From Hydrogenovibrio halophilus DSM 15072 (GTDB lineage Bacteria; Pseudomonadota; Gammaproteobacteria; Thiomicrospirales; Thiomicrospiraceae): a stretch of 64,000 nucleotides of DNA. Below the pieces are notes generated by a model. The model did no database searches. It saw nothing but the letters and a program-made list of their open reading frames with translations, and was not told where the DNA came from. Positions 10,001 to 13,824 of this stretch are shown here, piece by piece (the stretch's first letter is position 1; each line of letters begins with the position of its first letter). The DNA lies in the NCBI RefSeq assembly GCF_000384235.1, contig NZ_KB913033.1:1805164-1869163 (forward strand), given 5' to 3'. A program made the translations under genes and the position numbers.

Positions 10001-11143
10001 CTAGGGCCGGTTCAAGTGTTTCTGCTTGAAGGCGGCGAACGATTTTTTGATGTCGTAGTCTAGCATAGGTTTTCGCGCGGAAAGACCCCAATCCAGGCAC
10101 TGGTGGGGCGATTGAATGGCCTCAAGCAGGGCCTGCATCCAGCCGGCCTTGTTCAGGGCGGGCAGAATGCGTCCGGTCTGGTCATCGGTCACCAGCGTTT
10201 GTGGGCCGCCCCGGTCGCTGACCAGACAGCCGAGGCCGCTGGCCTGCGCTTCCATCACCACCTGGCCCAGGGTGTCGGTCACCGACGGAAACACAAACAG
10301 ATCGGCGCTGGCATAGACAATCGACAGGGCTTCACCGCGAATCGGGCCGGTAAAATATACATGGTGTTTTGCCAGACTGGCGGCCTTTTTCCGGTAGCGG
10401 CCTTCGCCCACCAGAATCAGGTCCGCGCCCAGATCTCCGTGGAGGCTTTGCAATGTCTGCCAGACATCCAGCAGAAAGGGAATCCCTTTTTCGATGTTGA
10501 TGCGGCCGACGTACAGCAGCTTTTTGCGTTCGGGGTCAAGCCCGAATTCCCGCCAGACAGAACCGTCCCGGTGACAGGGGTGAAACCGGTCCAGCCGCGT
10601 GCCCGGCGGCAAGGTGGTGATCCGGTCTGCGGGCAGGGCAATGTCGGTTTGCATGATCGATTCATAAGCTTTGGAGCGGGAAAACACCTGGGAAAAAGGC
10701 TGGTAAAAGCGGGCCATGACCTTGTCGGTGCGGCCTTTGACCCAGTGGGAGCGGGTCAGATCCAGCAGGTAGGCCGGAAAATCGGTGTGGTACGTGCCGA
10801 TCAGAGGCAGTGCCATTTTTTCGGCTTCCTGTTTGGCGAGCCAGCCGAAGGGGCCGGGGGTGGAAATGTGCACCGAATCCGGCTTCATCTCCTGCAAAAC
10901 GCCTTTTAAATGCTGTCTGGAAGGCCAGACCAGATCCATTTCCTGATAAAACGGCATCGGCACTCTGGCCCGCCAGGGCAGATTGGTGATCCAGGGCGCG
11001 TCAGGCAAAGGCTTGGCGGTGCTGGTGATCAGTCTCAAATCCAGATCGGGGTCTTCGGCGGCCAGTTCGCCCATGTCCTGAATAAAGCGCGAAACCCCGT
11101 TCAGGTCGCCCAGTGTGTCGGTAAACAAACAAACTTTGTGCAT
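10001..11143 (-). CDS. Glycosyltransferase family 4, putative glycolipid synthesis enzyme
   Basis: A 380-residue GT-B fold retaining glycosyltransferase. The N-terminal domain begins MHKVCLFTDTLGDLNGVSRF. The C-terminal domain carries the GT4 signature LLYVGRINIEKGIPFLL and the donor-binding region VFPSVTDTLGQVVMEAQASGLG. The start at 11143 is chosen because a longer reading to 11260 would overlap the upstream gene and a regulatory array. It is related to the next gene upstream but clearly a separate paralogue. Together with the PlcP-like and DgkA genes, it suggests glycosylation of diacylglycerol. An array of Pho-box-like repeats lies directly upstream. Sugar donor and acceptor are not provable from sequence. 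Confidence 0.85.
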   Translation of the reverse strand: MHKVCLFTDTLGDLNGVSRFIQDMGELAAEDPDLDLRLITSTAKPLPDAPWITNLPWRARVPMPFYQEMDLVWPSRQHLKGVLQEMKPDSVHISTPGPFGWLAKQEAEKMALPLIGTYHTDFPAYLLDLTRSHWVKGRTDKVMARFYQPFSQVFSRSKAYESIMQTDIALPADRITTLPPGTRLDRFHPCHRDGSVWREFGLDPERKKLLYVGRINIEKGIPFLLDVWQTLQSLHGDLGADLILVGEGRYRKKAASLAKHHVYFTGPIRGEALSIVYASADLFVFPSVTDTLGQVVMEAQASGLGCLVSDRGGPQTLVTDDQTGRILPALNKAGWMQALLEAIQSPHQCLDWGLSARKPMLDYDIKKSFAAFKQKHLNRP

Positions 11144-11186
11144 GATCCAGTCTCGTAAATGCCAATGGCTGAGACTAGCGCGTTTT

Positions 11187-11237
11187 CTGACGGCCTGAAT
11201 GAAACCTTTGTGAGGGTTGTGTGACGTTTTGATGAAA
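11187..11237 (-). promoter_or_regulatory. Pho-box-like array (five TGA/TCA repeats at 11-12 bp)
   Basis: On the minus strand, TTTCAT, CGTCAC, CCTCAC, TTTCAT and CGTCAG follow each other. Their TCA cores are spaced 11, 11, 11 and 12 bp. PhoB binds direct repeats of CTGTCA at 11-bp pitch, so this fits a degenerate tandem Pho box before the first glycosyltransferase gene. It fills the gap between the two glycosyltransferase genes. Confidence 0.6.
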
Positions 11238-11241
11238 TGCG

Positions 11242-12306
11242 TCAGTCCTGAGGCATCCACTGTGTCATGGGTTGGGGAATGTAGGCCAGATTGTGCAGGA
11301 ACTGCCGGGATGCGCCACGCCAGGTGTATTCGGGAATGGTTTTGGCCAGATCCGGGTGTTTGAGCGACTGGGCATCGATGATCGCGGTATAGAGGTCGCT
11401 CGAGAGCACGCCATTGAGGTCCGGGGTGATAATGTCTTTGGGACCGGTCACGGGAAAGGCCGCCACGGGGGTGCCGCAGGCAATGGCCTCGATATTGACC
11501 ACGCCGAAGGTGTCGGTCAGCGACGGAAACACAAACGCACGCGCCCCGGCGTAAAGACCGGCCAGATTGGCACCGGATTGAGCTCCGGTAAACAGGGCAT
11601 CGGGGTAATCGGTTTCCAGCGCATCGCGTTCCGGCCCGTCTCCCACCACCACTTTCTGGCCGGGCAGATTCAGGTCCAGAAACGCACGCAGATTTTTTTC
11701 CGGTGCGACCCGTCCGACGTACAGATAATAGGTTTCTGCCAGGCCTGGTGGTTTTTGATAGTCCGGCGATCGGTCGGCGTGGGGATGGAAGTAGCGATTG
11801 TCCACGCCGCGGGTCATGTGGGTCAGGTGTGAGAATCCGGCGCGGCTCAGGGTTTCCCGCATGGAAGCGGTGGGCACAAAGGTGCGCGTGGCCGGGCGGT
11901 GAAAGCGGCGCAGCAGGGCGTAGGTCCAGCTTTCCGGAATGGGTGCGCGGGCACGCACATATTGCGGGTATTGGGTGTGATAAGCCGTGGTAAACGGCCA
12001 GCCCCAGCGCTTGGCCAGCTTACGGGCCTTCCAGCCCAGCGCGCCTTCGGTCGCAATGTGCAGCGCTTCGGGTTCGAATTGGCGCAACCGTTCTGCCAGA
12101 TCCGGTGCCCGCCAGACCCAGGGGATTTCCTTGTAAGTGGGCAGCGGAATGCTGGGGTAATCGCCGGGCTGGATCACATCCACCTCTATGCCCTGATTCT
12201 GCAGTTGCTTCACCAGTTGCGAAAGGGTGGTGACCACGCCATTGACCTGGGGCGACCAGGCATCGGTGACCAGTGTCAGGCGGCGGATAGCGGGGTGTGT
12301 TGTCAT
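11242..12306 (-). CDS. Glycosyltransferase family 4 (Agt/MgtA-like)
   Basis: A 354-residue GT-B enzyme. The N-terminus LVTDAWSPQVNGVV is the typical opening of the MgtA / Agt / SqdX-like GT4 group, followed by HIATEGALG, AYHTQYP and the hallmark YVGRVAPEKNLRAFL. The donor loop is FPSLTDTFGVVNIEAIACG. Known relatives transfer mannose, glucose or glucuronate to diacylglycerol, including Agt of the phosphate-starvation lipid-remodelling pathway in marine and soil bacteria. The start at 12306 is chosen because the Pho-type promoter at 12337-12381 would otherwise lie inside the gene. The partial palindrome at 11739-11749 is read KPPGLAE. Confidence 0.87.
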   Translation of the reverse strand: MTTHPAIRRLTLVTDAWSPQVNGVVTTLSQLVKQLQNQGIEVDVIQPGDYPSIPLPTYKEIPWVWRAPDLAERLRQFEPEALHIATEGALGWKARKLAKRWGWPFTTAYHTQYPQYVRARAPIPESWTYALLRRFHRPATRTFVPTASMRETLSRAGFSHLTHMTRGVDNRYFHPHADRSPDYQKPPGLAETYYLYVGRVAPEKNLRAFLDLNLPGQKVVVGDGPERDALETDYPDALFTGAQSGANLAGLYAGARAFVFPSLTDTFGVVNIEAIACGTPVAAFPVTGPKDIITPDLNGVLSSDLYTAIIDAQSLKHPDLAKTIPEYTWRGASRQFLHNLAYIPQPMTQWMPQD

Positions 12307-12331
12307 AAAGCAGGCTCGGTCATTCAGTAAA

Positions 12332-12346
12332 CAACGATTATCGTTG
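12332..12346. promoter_or_regulatory. Perfect 15-bp dyad over the glycosyltransferase promoter
   Basis: CAACGATTATCGTTG has two perfect 7-bp arms. It covers the -10 hexamer GATAAT (minus strand, 12337-12342). A dyad in this place is where a repressor would bind. No known regulator is recognised. Confidence 0.5.
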
Positions 12347-12352
12347 GTCAAT

Positions 12353-12381
12353 GTGACAGGCGTGAGCAGATTGGATGACAG
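12353..12381 (-). promoter_or_regulatory. Pho box before the Agt-like glycosyltransferase gene
   Basis: Minus strand: CTGTCAT, a degenerate TCTGCTC and CTGTCAC, each at 11-bp pitch. The -10 hexamer GATAAT begins exactly 10 nt after the last repeat, as in PhoB-dependent promoters where the box replaces the -35. Confidence 0.75.
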
Positions 12382-12403
12382 TGAGATGAAAGCGGTGGTC
12401 TGG

Positions 12404-12432
12404 CTGTCATGCAACCGTCATCAAAGCGTCAC
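12404..12432 (+). promoter_or_regulatory. Pho box before the PlcP-like gene
   Basis: CTGTCAT-GCAA-CCGTCAT followed by CAAA-GCGTCAC: three direct repeats at 11-bp pitch, close to the PhoB consensus CTGTCAT-N4-CTGTCAT. It is divergent from the box at 12353-12381. A weak -10 (TAAACT) lies about 22 bp after the last repeat. Confidence 0.78.
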
Positions 12433-12494
12433 GCGGTTGTTGTGTCGGCTTTTTAAACTGGCTGCAAAATCCAAACAGAGCGAACACAAGACTG

Positions 12495-13403
12495 ATGACG
12501 GAGACCGATCAACTGGCGGACAACGCCTTGCCCGACTGGATGGCATCCATTGAATCCGACGATCTGATTGTGGCCGAAAACGACCACCAGACCAATTGGT
12601 ATCGCAGCATTTTCATTTCCGATGTGCATTTGGGGTCCAAAGCGGCCAAGGCCGAATTTCTGGCCGAATTTCTGAAATACCACCAGTGCGATAAATTGTT
12701 TCTGGTCGGCGACATCATCGATGGCTGGCGCTTGAAAAAACGTATTTTTTGGCCGCAGACCCACACCAATGTGATCCGCCGGATTCTGACCAAAGCCAAA
12801 CGCGGTACCGAAGTGGTGTTTGTGACCGGCAACCACGACGACTTTCTGCGCCGCTATTCCGGGATCGATTTCGGCAATATTCAACTGACCGACGAGGCCG
12901 AACACGAAACCCTCAACGGGGATCGGCTGCTGGTGGTGCATGGCGACAAGTACGACAGCGTGATCCAGACTCAGAAATGGTTGGCGGTGGTGGGCGATTG
13001 GGGCTATGAAACCCTGGTGCTGCTCAACCGCCATTTCAACCGTCTGCGCCAGAAATTCGGCATGGGCTACTGGTCTCTGTCGGCGTACGTCAAACACAAG
13101 GTCAAATCCGCGGTGTCGTTTATCACCGCCTACGAAGAAGCCGTGGTCAAAGACTGCCGGGAACAGGGGTATGATGGCGTGGTCTGCGGGCACATCCATC
13201 ACCCGGAAATCCGCAAGATCGACGAGATCGACTATTACAACTGCGGGGACTGGGTGGAGTCCTGCACCGCGATGGTGGAAACCGCCAGCGGCGAACTCAA
13301 ATTGCTGAAATGGGTCGACATCCAGCACGCGCAGAATCGGGAACAGCCCTTGCCAGCAAGCGCTCAGCCAGCGGAGCCGGAGGTGGCGCGTGAGCAAGTT
13401 TGA
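12495..13403 (+). CDS. PlcP-like metallophosphoesterase (LpxH/UDP-diacylglucosamine hydrolase-like fold)
   Basis: A 302-residue calcineurin-like phosphoesterase with all metal-binding blocks: SDVHLGS (D-x-H), GDIIDGW (GDxxD), GNHDD (GNHD), VHGDKYD and GHIHHPEI (GHxH). The sequence type is the one often annotated as UDP-2,3-diacylglucosamine diphosphatase but longer than LpxH. PlcP phospholipases C of phosphate-starved bacteria belong here; they cleave phosphatidyl lipids to diacylglycerol. That role is inferred from the Pho box upstream, the two lipid-type glycosyltransferases, and dgkA overlapping its 3' end. An alternative is a true lipid A enzyme, but LpxH genes rarely have this context. 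Confidence 0.8.
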   Translation: MTETDQLADNALPDWMASIESDDLIVAENDHQTNWYRSIFISDVHLGSKAAKAEFLAEFLKYHQCDKLFLVGDIIDGWRLKKRIFWPQTHTNVIRRILTKAKRGTEVVFVTGNHDDFLRRYSGIDFGNIQLTDEAEHETLNGDRLLVVHGDKYDSVIQTQKWLAVVGDWGYETLVLLNRHFNRLRQKFGMGYWSLSAYVKHKVKSAVSFITAYEEAVVKDCREQGYDGVVCGHIHHPEIRKIDEIDYYNCGDWVESCTAMVETASGELKLLKWVDIQHAQNREQPLPASAQPAEPEVAREQV

Positions 13404-13824
13404 GCAAAGGCCCTCCGGGCTGGCCAATGTGCATTCCCATGCAATGAAACCTGGGCACCGGGGCTTTGTCCGCATCATCAAAGCGGCGGGGTATTCCTGG
13501 CACGGCATCAAGGCCTGTTACAAAAACGAAGCCGCATTCCGCCAGGAGCTGTGGTTGCTGGTGGTGCTGACGCCCTTGTCTATGTGGCTGTCGACCAACG
13601 CGGTCGAGTTTCTGTTGCTGATCGGTTCGGTGGTGTTGCTGCTGGTGGTGGAACTGCTCAATACCGCGATTGAAATGGTGGTGGACCGACACGGCGAAGA
13701 ATGGCACCCGCTGGCCAAACTGGCCAAAGACATGGGCTCGGCCGCGGTGTTTGTGATGATGGCCCTGGCCGGGCTGGTGTGGCTCACCATCGCCATCTCC
13801 CGCTTCGGCTGGCAGTGGTTTTAA
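13390..13824 (+). CDS. dgkA: Diacylglycerol kinase
   Basis: Small inner-membrane kinase that phosphorylates diacylglycerol to phosphatidic acid. The 144 residues have three hydrophobic helices. NEAAFRQE and the catalytic NTAIEMVVDR (family signature E-x-x-N-T/S-A-I-E-x-V-V-D) are present. The GTG start has GGAGG 7 bases upstream and overlaps the preceding phosphoesterase gene by 14 bp, showing translational coupling. In this operon it would recycle the diacylglycerol released by the PlcP-like enzyme or compete with the glycosyltransferases for it. The N-terminal ~20 residues are longer than in E. coli DgkA; ATG at 13444 is an alternative start. Confidence 0.93.
   Translation: MSKFEQRPSGLANVHSHAMKPGHRGFVRIIKAAGYSWHGIKACYKNEAAFRQELWLLVVLTPLSMWLSTNAVEFLLLIGSVVLLLVVELLNTAIEMVVDRHGEEWHPLAKLAKDMGSAAVFVMMALAGLVWLTIAISRFGWQWF

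What the first reader, a model, noticed from the sequence alone, without database searches (positions are those of the whole stretch)
10001..13824. Pho-box-controlled lipid-remodelling cassette: two glycosyltransferases, PlcP-like esterase and DgkA
In some marine and soil bacteria, phosphate starvation induces PlcP (phospholipid to diacylglycerol) and Agt (diacylglycerol to glycolipid). Here a PlcP-like metallophosphoesterase, an Agt/MgtA-like GT4, a second GT4 and a diacylglycerol kinase are adjacent. Pho-box repeats lie upstream of all three transcripts. The second glycosyltransferase suggests a two-sugar head group. DgkA in the same operon could return diacylglycerol to phospholipid when phosphate returns.
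Basis: partly seen in the sequence, partly recalled or inferred. Interest (0 to 1): 0.75.

Follow-up and report, generated by a model that had tools for sequence, protein, structure and literature searches.

The report
Phosphate-starvation membrane-lipid swap gene cluster
This gene cluster most likely lets a bacterium replace phosphorus-containing membrane lipids with sugar lipids when phosphate is scarce, a known strategy; its less ordinary part is a diacylglycerol kinase that turns up beside the same genes in several other bacterial families.

Summary
At 10001-13824 lie a GT4 glycosyltransferase (GTdist), an Agt-type GT4 (GTprox), a PlcP-type metallophosphoesterase and a DgkA. Pho-box-like 11-bp repeat arrays precede all three transcripts. 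The esterase groups with PlcP, not LpxH (100/100), and the genome has a separate LpxH. The same motif precedes the genome's pst-phoU-phoB operon and an OlsF-type ornithine-lipid synthase. It is very probably a PlcP-Agt lipid-remodelling locus, a known kind. The two-sugar head group is neither shown nor excluded: GTdist is an orphan clade, found beside GTprox only in the window's genus.

The newer part is DgkA. Of 249 genomes drawn from the phylum, 49 have both PlcP and DgkA; the two lie within 5 kb in 6 (4 families, window included), against 0.13 expected. Burkholderia-group loci also have plcP-agt-dgkA, and one uncultured alphaproteobacterial contig encodes a single Agt-DgkA protein beside plcP. 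In the window's genus the cassette DgkA differs from the housekeeping copy, which the window genome lacks. DgkA most likely returns surplus diacylglycerol to phosphatidic acid. Activities, regulation and lipids were not measured.

The parts
10001..11143 (-). GTdist: GT4 glycosyltransferase of an orphan clade, probably a lipid glycosyltransferase; sugar and acceptor unknown (longest ORF runs to 11260)
   Evidence: Pfam Glyco_trans_1_4 and Glyco_transf_4; best NCBIfam match is a lipid GT, far below its cut-off; own clade 100/100; 1 weak match in 248 other genomes
11199..11238 (-). Pho-box-like array before GTdist (four units, 11-bp period)
   Evidence: own array also before GTdist in the 4 relatives that have a long gap there
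11242..12306 (-). GTprox: Agt-type GT4 glycosyltransferase (longest ORF runs to 12414)
   Evidence: Agt clade of 23 rows, 100/99; 46-47% identity to the plcP-adjacent GT of three Pseudomonas genomes
12353..12392 (-). Pho-box-like array before GTprox (one unit degenerate)
12404..12432 (+). Pho-box-like array before plcP (three units, 11-bp period)
12495..13403 (+). PlcP-type metallophosphoesterase (phospholipase C)
13390..13824 (+). DgkA-type diacylglycerol kinase, GTG start, overlaps plcP by 14 bp; the only PF01219 gene found in the genome
   Evidence: alignment to E. coli DgkA keeps the residues recalled as catalytic

Best explanation
A PhoB-controlled PlcP-Agt lipid-remodelling cassette with a built-in diacylglycerol (DAG) kinase. 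When phosphate is short, PhoB binds three Pho-box arrays and switches on plcP-dgkA, GTprox and GTdist. PlcP cuts the phosphorylated head group off membrane phospholipids and leaves DAG. GTprox (Agt type) puts a sugar on DAG and makes a phosphorus-free glycolipid. DgkA competes for the same DAG and re-phosphorylates the surplus to phosphatidic acid, so that DAG does not build up and the cell can swing back to phospholipids. GTdist probably also glycosylates lipid; sugar and acceptor are unknown. Shown by sequence: gene families, repeat arrays, PlcP and Agt membership, a separate LpxH, recurrent plcP-dgkA linkage and one Agt-DgkA fusion frame. Inferred: enzyme activities, PhoB binding, one plcP-dgkA transcript, direction and purpose of the DgkA flux, the sugars.
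For: PlcP: 37-row group apart from 5 LpxH-like rows, 100/100; weak to LpxH models; separate LpxH. Agt. Pho boxes; before plcP in 14 of the 16 family loci scanned (of 25 held) at p about 0.01 or less. The motif also precedes the pst-phoU-phoB operon and an OlsF over its cut-off, 837.8 against 620 bits. PhoB present, 332.8 against 296.2 bits. Linkage of DgkA: 6 of 49 genomes with both genes within 5 kb, 0.13 expected; 8 of 30 relatives' loci and 6 of 80 named loci. Fusion frame in L110. Published parallels, passages only: PlcP and a DagK both PhoBR-dependent in P. putida BIRD-1 (PMC5082522); eptA, an enzyme that leaves DAG behind, co-regulated with dgkA (PMC7559476).
Against: No expression, binding, enzyme or lipid data. 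DgkA uses ATP phosphate, so making it in starvation saves no phosphate by itself. Most plcP loci have no DgkA nearby: 22 of 30 and 74 of 80, some of them cut short by contig ends. In G048, G054 and G167 the GT directly after plcP is not in the Agt clade. In G116 and G140 dgkA lies before plcP and no Pho-box array stands out before dgkA. L043 has no array on the plcP strand and L044 is at p 0.03; of 6 relatives' GTprox, 2 miss p 0.01. One origin of all linked DgkAs is not rejected (p 0.09). The Pseudomonas PlcP rows are genus relatives; no experimentally tested PlcP or Agt sequence was in the trees.
Confidence: 0.72

Rival explanations
1. PlcP-Agt remodelling as above, but DgkA is only a passenger: the cell needs one DgkA for ordinary DAG recycling, and its place behind plcP is an accident of gene order.
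For: It is the only DgkA found in the genome; 74 of 80 named and 22 of 30 relatives' plcP loci have none nearby; only 6 of 49 genomes of the phylum draw with both genes have them within 5 kb.
Against: 6 against 0.13 expected; without the window 5 of 48 against 0.128, in 3 families. Several gene orders, and one fusion with the GT. G002, G005 and G009 keep an unlinked DgkA besides the linked one, and the linked ones form their own clade.
Confidence: 0.22
2. The cassette DgkA is for recovery: the enzyme laid in during starvation turns DAG back into phospholipid when phosphate returns.
For: Same gene data as the best explanation; the two differ only in when flux runs through DgkA.
Against: No datum here favours it. 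Transcription from a Pho box would fall when phosphate returns.
Confidence: 0.25
3. The two glycosyltransferases act in series and make a two-sugar lipid.
For: Two Pho-controlled GT4s side by side; in 7 of 10 PlcP-bearing genomes of the genus they occur together, and GTdist is missing from the stretch in the other 3. Two-step glycosylation of ceramide by a Pho-regulated GT pair is published for Caulobacter (PMC6445935, passages).
Against: GTdist resembles neither clade compared and has no closer named family. Two GTs can make two one-sugar lipids (PMC8528852, passages). A UDP-glucose dehydrogenase gene between plcP and dgkA in G006 hints instead at a glucuronic-acid lipid.
Confidence: 0.25
4. 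The esterase is a second LpxH and the locus serves lipid A.
For: Its best NCBIfam and PDB matches are LpxH, and the listed plasmid-borne relatives are annotated UDP-2,3-diacylglucosamine diphosphatase.
Against: 60 and 43.7 bits against cut-offs of 134 and 190.35; PlcP group at 100/100; GNHD where the genome's own LpxH has GNRD; that LpxH passes both cut-offs.
Confidence: 0.03

Closest known systems
PlcP-Agt lipid remodelling of marine heterotrophs, plcP with a downstream agt (Sebastian et al., PMC4796936; passages)
   Same: PlcP, an Agt-type GT4 and Pho boxes at one locus
   Different: GTprox is divergent from plcP; a second GT4 of another clade and a dgkA are added. The words kinase and dgk do not occur in the main text
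PlcP, Agt1 and Agt2 of Pseudomonas aeruginosa (Jones et al., PMC8528852; passages)
   Same: One phospholipase and two Pho-boxed GT4s; GTprox falls with plcP-adjacent GTs of other Pseudomonas species
   Different: GTdist is not in the clade of the second Pseudomonas GT4 (taken as Agt2 by inference). No dgkA in the description: kinase and DgkA do not occur in the main text
plcP-agt operon of Methylosinus trichosporium OB3b (PMC9239053; passages)
   Same: PlcP and Agt; the mutant lacks the glucuronic-acid lipid
   Different: The word kinase does not occur in the main text
Pho-dependent PlcP and DagK of Pseudomonas putida BIRD-1 (PMC5082522; passages)
   Same: A DAG kinase and PlcP both made under PhoBR control
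   Different: Proteome data; gene linkage is not described in the passages seen, and DagK may be of another DAG-kinase family than DgkA
Phosphate islands of HIMB59 alphaproteobacteria (PMC10734472; passages)
   Same: DGK, a gene called LpxH and a glycosyltransferase in one phosphate island
   Different: In the passages seen, DGK and the glycosyltransferase are called genes without direct phosphorus function and LpxH is read as lipid A synthesis
eptA with dgkA, and mcr-3-dgkA (PMC7559476; passages)
   Same: A DAG kinase co-regulated or linked with an enzyme that leaves DAG behind
   Different: Lipid A modification, not phosphate saving; the DAG source is another enzyme

Membership tests
PlcP | Groups with PlcP-type proteins, apart from LpxH | tested here: met
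   37 rows against 5 LpxH-like rows, 100/100; no experimentally tested PlcP was among the rows
PlcP | Calcineurin-like metal-site motifs (DxH, GD, GNHD, GHIH; motif roles recalled) | tested here: met
   Invariant D43, H45, D73, N113, H114, H149, H233, H235 in 14 sequences; Metallophos
PlcP | A separate LpxH in the genome | tested here: met
PlcP | Phospholipase C activity on PE or PG | not testable with these tools
   enzyme assay needed
Agt (GTprox) | Member of the Agt clade next to plcP | tested here: met
   23-row clade, 100/99; adjacent and divergent
Agt (GTdist) | Member of the Agt or Agt2-like clade | tested here: not met
   Own clade, 100/100, midpoint root, long branch
[quoted passage not shown]
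   expression and mass spectrometry needed
DgkA | Prokaryotic DAG kinase domain with conserved active-site residues (roles recalled) | tested here: met
   PF01219, 119.9 bits against 22.3; alignment with E. coli DgkA
DgkA | DAG rather than another lipid alcohol as substrate | not testable with these tools
   enzyme assay needed
Pho regulon | Direct repeats of 11-bp period before the transcripts, shared with a pst operon | tested here: met
Pho regulon | PhoB binding and induction by phosphate starvation | not testable with these tools
   no expression data; a PhoB over the cut-off is present

The most novel reading that the evidence does not exclude
DAG kinase is an unrecognised third enzyme of PlcP-Agt remodelling in several proteobacterial lineages. 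PlcP, Agt and DgkA form a branch-point module, in one lineage with Agt and DgkA in a single protein, in which the two enzymes share or compete for PlcP-made DAG and so set how much phospholipid is replaced. Removing dgkA would change the glycolipid to phospholipid ratio of starved cells.
Probability: 0.45. Interest if true: 0.65.

Novelty: new variant of a known kind. Interest (0 to 1): 0.48.

Why it matters
PlcP-Agt remodelling is a widespread way for bacteria to save phosphorus. DAG, the intermediate between the two enzymes, disturbs membranes, and its fate is not treated in the passages I read. A DAG kinase that recurs at these loci, once fused to the sugar-adding enzyme, gives a testable answer: a built-in way to put surplus DAG back. 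It also gives a rule for annotation: a gene called LpxH beside a GT4 and dgkA behind a Pho box is probably a lipid-remodelling unit, not lipid A synthesis.

Tried and rejected
LpxH reading of the esterase: rejected. LpxI was not searched. Second-sugar reading of GTdist: neither shown nor excluded. Further DgkA fusions: five DgkA hits with long open frames were checked; none carried a GT or PlcP match, and the extra length looks like out-of-frame reading. Burkholderia-group dgkA frames also looked long, but agt and dgkA are in different frames there, so these are not fusions. One origin of all plcP-linked DgkAs: not rejected for all 19 rows (AU p 0.09), borderline for 17 (p 0.036); parsimony gives 3 changes. 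Independent recruitment is therefore likely, not proven. Five long-branch DgkA rows (M30B68LINK, G007a, G054un1, G017un, G050un) were left out of the second DgkA tree; they are in the first, where the family's unlinked DgkA clade has only 81/88. Structure prediction was not run. Pho-box scan before plcP: 16 of the 25 family loci held were scanned, 9 were not.

Literature: (listings; some showed 25 of 71 and 20 of 59) gave no title or abstract on a plcP-dgkA linkage or an Agt-DgkA fusion. No paper was read whole; subscription papers are not held; the HIMB59 paper comes closest. (passages) added nothing decisive. One search found nothing on lipids of the host group among the 10 titles shown. The host is placed by family only: the contig length of G025 (2441997) equals that of Thiomicrorhabdus chilensis DSM 12352, so the family is probably that of Thiomicrorhabdus; the window's genus is unnamed.

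Gene names glycogen phosphorylase, PhoR and lipoprotein-like were given by eye from the translations, not by a family search.
Full report
What is there. The stretch 10001-13824 encodes, on the minus strand, two GT4 glycosyltransferases (GTdist 10001-11143, GTprox 11242-12306) and, on the plus strand, a metallophosphoesterase (12495-13403) and a prokaryotic diacylglycerol kinase (13390-13824). GTprox and the esterase gene are divergent and share 188 bp. The kinase gene overlaps the esterase gene by 14 bp and has a GGAGG before its GTG.

Esterase. It scores 60 and 43.7 bits against two LpxH models with cut-offs of 134 and 190.35. The genome (2.36 Mb, one contig) holds another gene that passes both, with 227.1 and 197 bits. 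In a tree of 42 rows the window protein lies in a PlcP group of 37, apart from 5 LpxH-like rows that include E. coli LpxH and the genome's own (100/100). The tree holds PlcP-type rows from named Pseudomonas, Mesorhizobium, Burkholderia and others, but no experimentally tested PlcP.

Glycosyltransferases. In a 40-row tree GTprox is in a 23-row Agt clade (100/99) with plcP-adjacent GTs of Pseudomonas, Mesorhizobium, Acidocella and Burkholderia. GTdist and its four included relatives form their own clade (100/100). An 8-row clade (99/99) holds the second GT4 of Pseudomonas genomes, which I take to be Agt2 by inference, and the last GT of the G048 operon. A further 3-row clade (100/99) holds the GTs that directly follow plcP in G048, G054 and G167; so these are not Agt in the strict sense. 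GTdist is rare: 1 weak match (29%) in the 248 other genomes drawn from the phylum. It lies beside GTprox in the 6 same-genus relatives that have a plcP-linked DgkA and not in the stretches of the other 3 PlcP-bearing ones. In G003 and G006 it follows GTprox directly. In G002, G005, G008 and G009 it has its own array (p 0.002 each) after a gap of 442-561 bp that also encodes a small, hydrophobic protein absent from the window's 98-bp gap. So GTdist belongs to the cassette, but its sugar and acceptor are open. In G006 a UDP-glucose dehydrogenase gene lies between plcP and dgkA, a hint at a glucuronic-acid lipid in that species.

Pho boxes. Three arrays with 11-bp period precede the three transcripts. 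The triple TCAY repeat has 8 matches at 6 places in the genome and none for the reversed pattern. Two places are here; the others precede an OlsF-type synthase (837.8 bits, cut-off 620), a SulP transporter, a HAMP-domain protein and a lipoprotein-like ORF. The two-repeat pattern has 8 matches and none reversed: the GTprox site, the pst-phoU-phoB operon, a gene that looks like glycogen phosphorylase, the lipoprotein-like site again, and four others without a clear meaning, three of them inside longer open frames. Before plcP the array reaches p about 0.01 or less in 14 of 16 family loci scanned (of 25 held); L043 fails (0.79) and L044 is at 0.03. For GTprox 4 of 6 relatives reach 0.01; L034 is at 0.04 and L036 at 0.40. 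Among distant linked loci, plcP is preceded by clear arrays (three-unit score, p 0.002-0.004) in 4 of 4 Burkholderia-group loci, G201, G253 and L100; the score is weaker for G116 (0.006), L110 (0.016) and G048 (0.017), and not significant for G140 (0.10), G167 (0.12) and G054 (0.30). In G116 and G140 dgkA lies before plcP and has no clear array of its own.

DgkA in the genus. It is the only PF01219 gene found in the genome. G003, G006 and G008 also have only the plcP-linked copy. G002, G005 and G009 have a linked and an unlinked copy. G001, G004 and G010 have only an unlinked one. G007 has no PlcP match and two DgkAs. The 7 linked copies of the genus form one clade (100/99) apart from 13 unlinked copies of the family (97/96; 81/88 in the larger set). 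So the cassette copy is a second DgkA and the window strain lost the housekeeping one (inference).

How far the linkage reaches. Of 30 PlcP loci from relatives, 8 have DgkA within the stretch held: six of the genus and two other gammaproteobacterial families, with plcP-GT-dgkA-GT (G048) and plcP-GT-dgkA (G054). Of 80 named loci, 6 do: four Burkholderia-group loci (plcP-agt-dgkA), a divergent case (L100), and L110, an uncultured alphaproteobacterium (isolate AG-359-F09), where one open frame carries GT4 domains and DAGK_prokar (102.7 bits). The fusion was seen once, in one contig, so an assembly error is possible. 36 of the 80 have a GT of the GTprox profile directly downstream of plcP, two of them cut by the contig end. 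These 80 are the best of 587 from a capped scan and rich in Pseudomonas. In 249 genomes drawn from the phylum, 79 have PlcP (E up to 1e-40) and 122 have DgkA; 49 have both, and in 6 of these (4 families) the two lie within 5 kb, against 0.13 expected. Without the window it is 5 of 48 in 3 families against 0.128. Genomes of one family are not independent, and pairs on different contigs cannot be measured. Five genomes of one genus have the genes 11-15 kb apart and were not counted.

History. Ten distant linked DgkAs, the fusion included, form one clade (98/94). Within it the Burkholderia-group, G201, G253 and L110 members also group in the PlcP tree (93/82) and the Agt tree (94/86), as if plcP-agt-dgkA were passed on together. 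G048 and G054 do not follow: their PlcPs group elsewhere and the GT after plcP is of another clade. G116 and G140 form a third group of linked DgkAs. Separate origins are likely but not proven: one clade of all linked DgkAs has AU p 0.09.

How it most likely works. PlcP makes DAG from phospholipid, GTprox adds a sugar, and DgkA returns surplus DAG to phosphatidic acid. The eptA-dgkA pairing is a published parallel (PMC7559476, passages), and PlcP and a DagK are both PhoBR-dependent in P. putida BIRD-1 (PMC5082522, passages). Nothing measured here separates recycling during starvation from repair afterwards, or either from a passenger gene.

Novelty. The PlcP-Agt pathway, versions with two GTs and Pho control are known (PMC4796936, PMC8528852, PMC9239053; passages). 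HIMB59 phosphate islands list DGK, LpxH and a GT without calling them one unit in the passages seen (PMC10734472). The recurrent DgkA linkage and the Agt-DgkA fusion were not seen in the listings. Verdict: a new variant of a known kind.

Noticed in passing
own genome C1:1351950-1351986 (-), L161:1668-3473: A bifunctional OlsF-type ornithine-lipid synthase (837.8 bits, cut-off 620) has a four-unit Pho-box-like array just before its likely start; it suggests a second phosphorus-free lipid under the same control.
   Followed up: partly
L110:6707-8179: One open frame joins an Agt-type GT4 and a DgkA domain next to plcP in an uncultured alphaproteobacterium.
   Followed up: partly
L038:8361-9692: A UDP-glucose dehydrogenase gene is inserted between plcP and dgkA in the same-genus genome G006.
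   Followed up: partly
L035:9567-10031 and matching gaps of L034, L036, L039: A conserved small hydrophobic protein without a Pfam match is encoded between GTprox and GTdist in four relatives but not in the window.
   Followed up: partly
own genome C1:874308 (+), 1919486 (-), 593258 (-), 453690 (-): Pho-box-like repeats also precede a SulP transporter, a HAMP-domain protein, a glycogen-phosphorylase-like gene and a lipoprotein-like ORF.
   Followed up: no
L040, L041, L042: In the three same-genus genomes without the linked DgkA, a weak PlcP-profile match on the other strand, LpxH-like where placed in the tree (L040, L041), lies about 0.5 kb beyond plcP.
   Followed up: partly
G103, G123, G174, G245, G248: PlcP and DgkA lie 11-15 kb apart in five genomes of one genus, near but not adjacent.
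   Followed up: no
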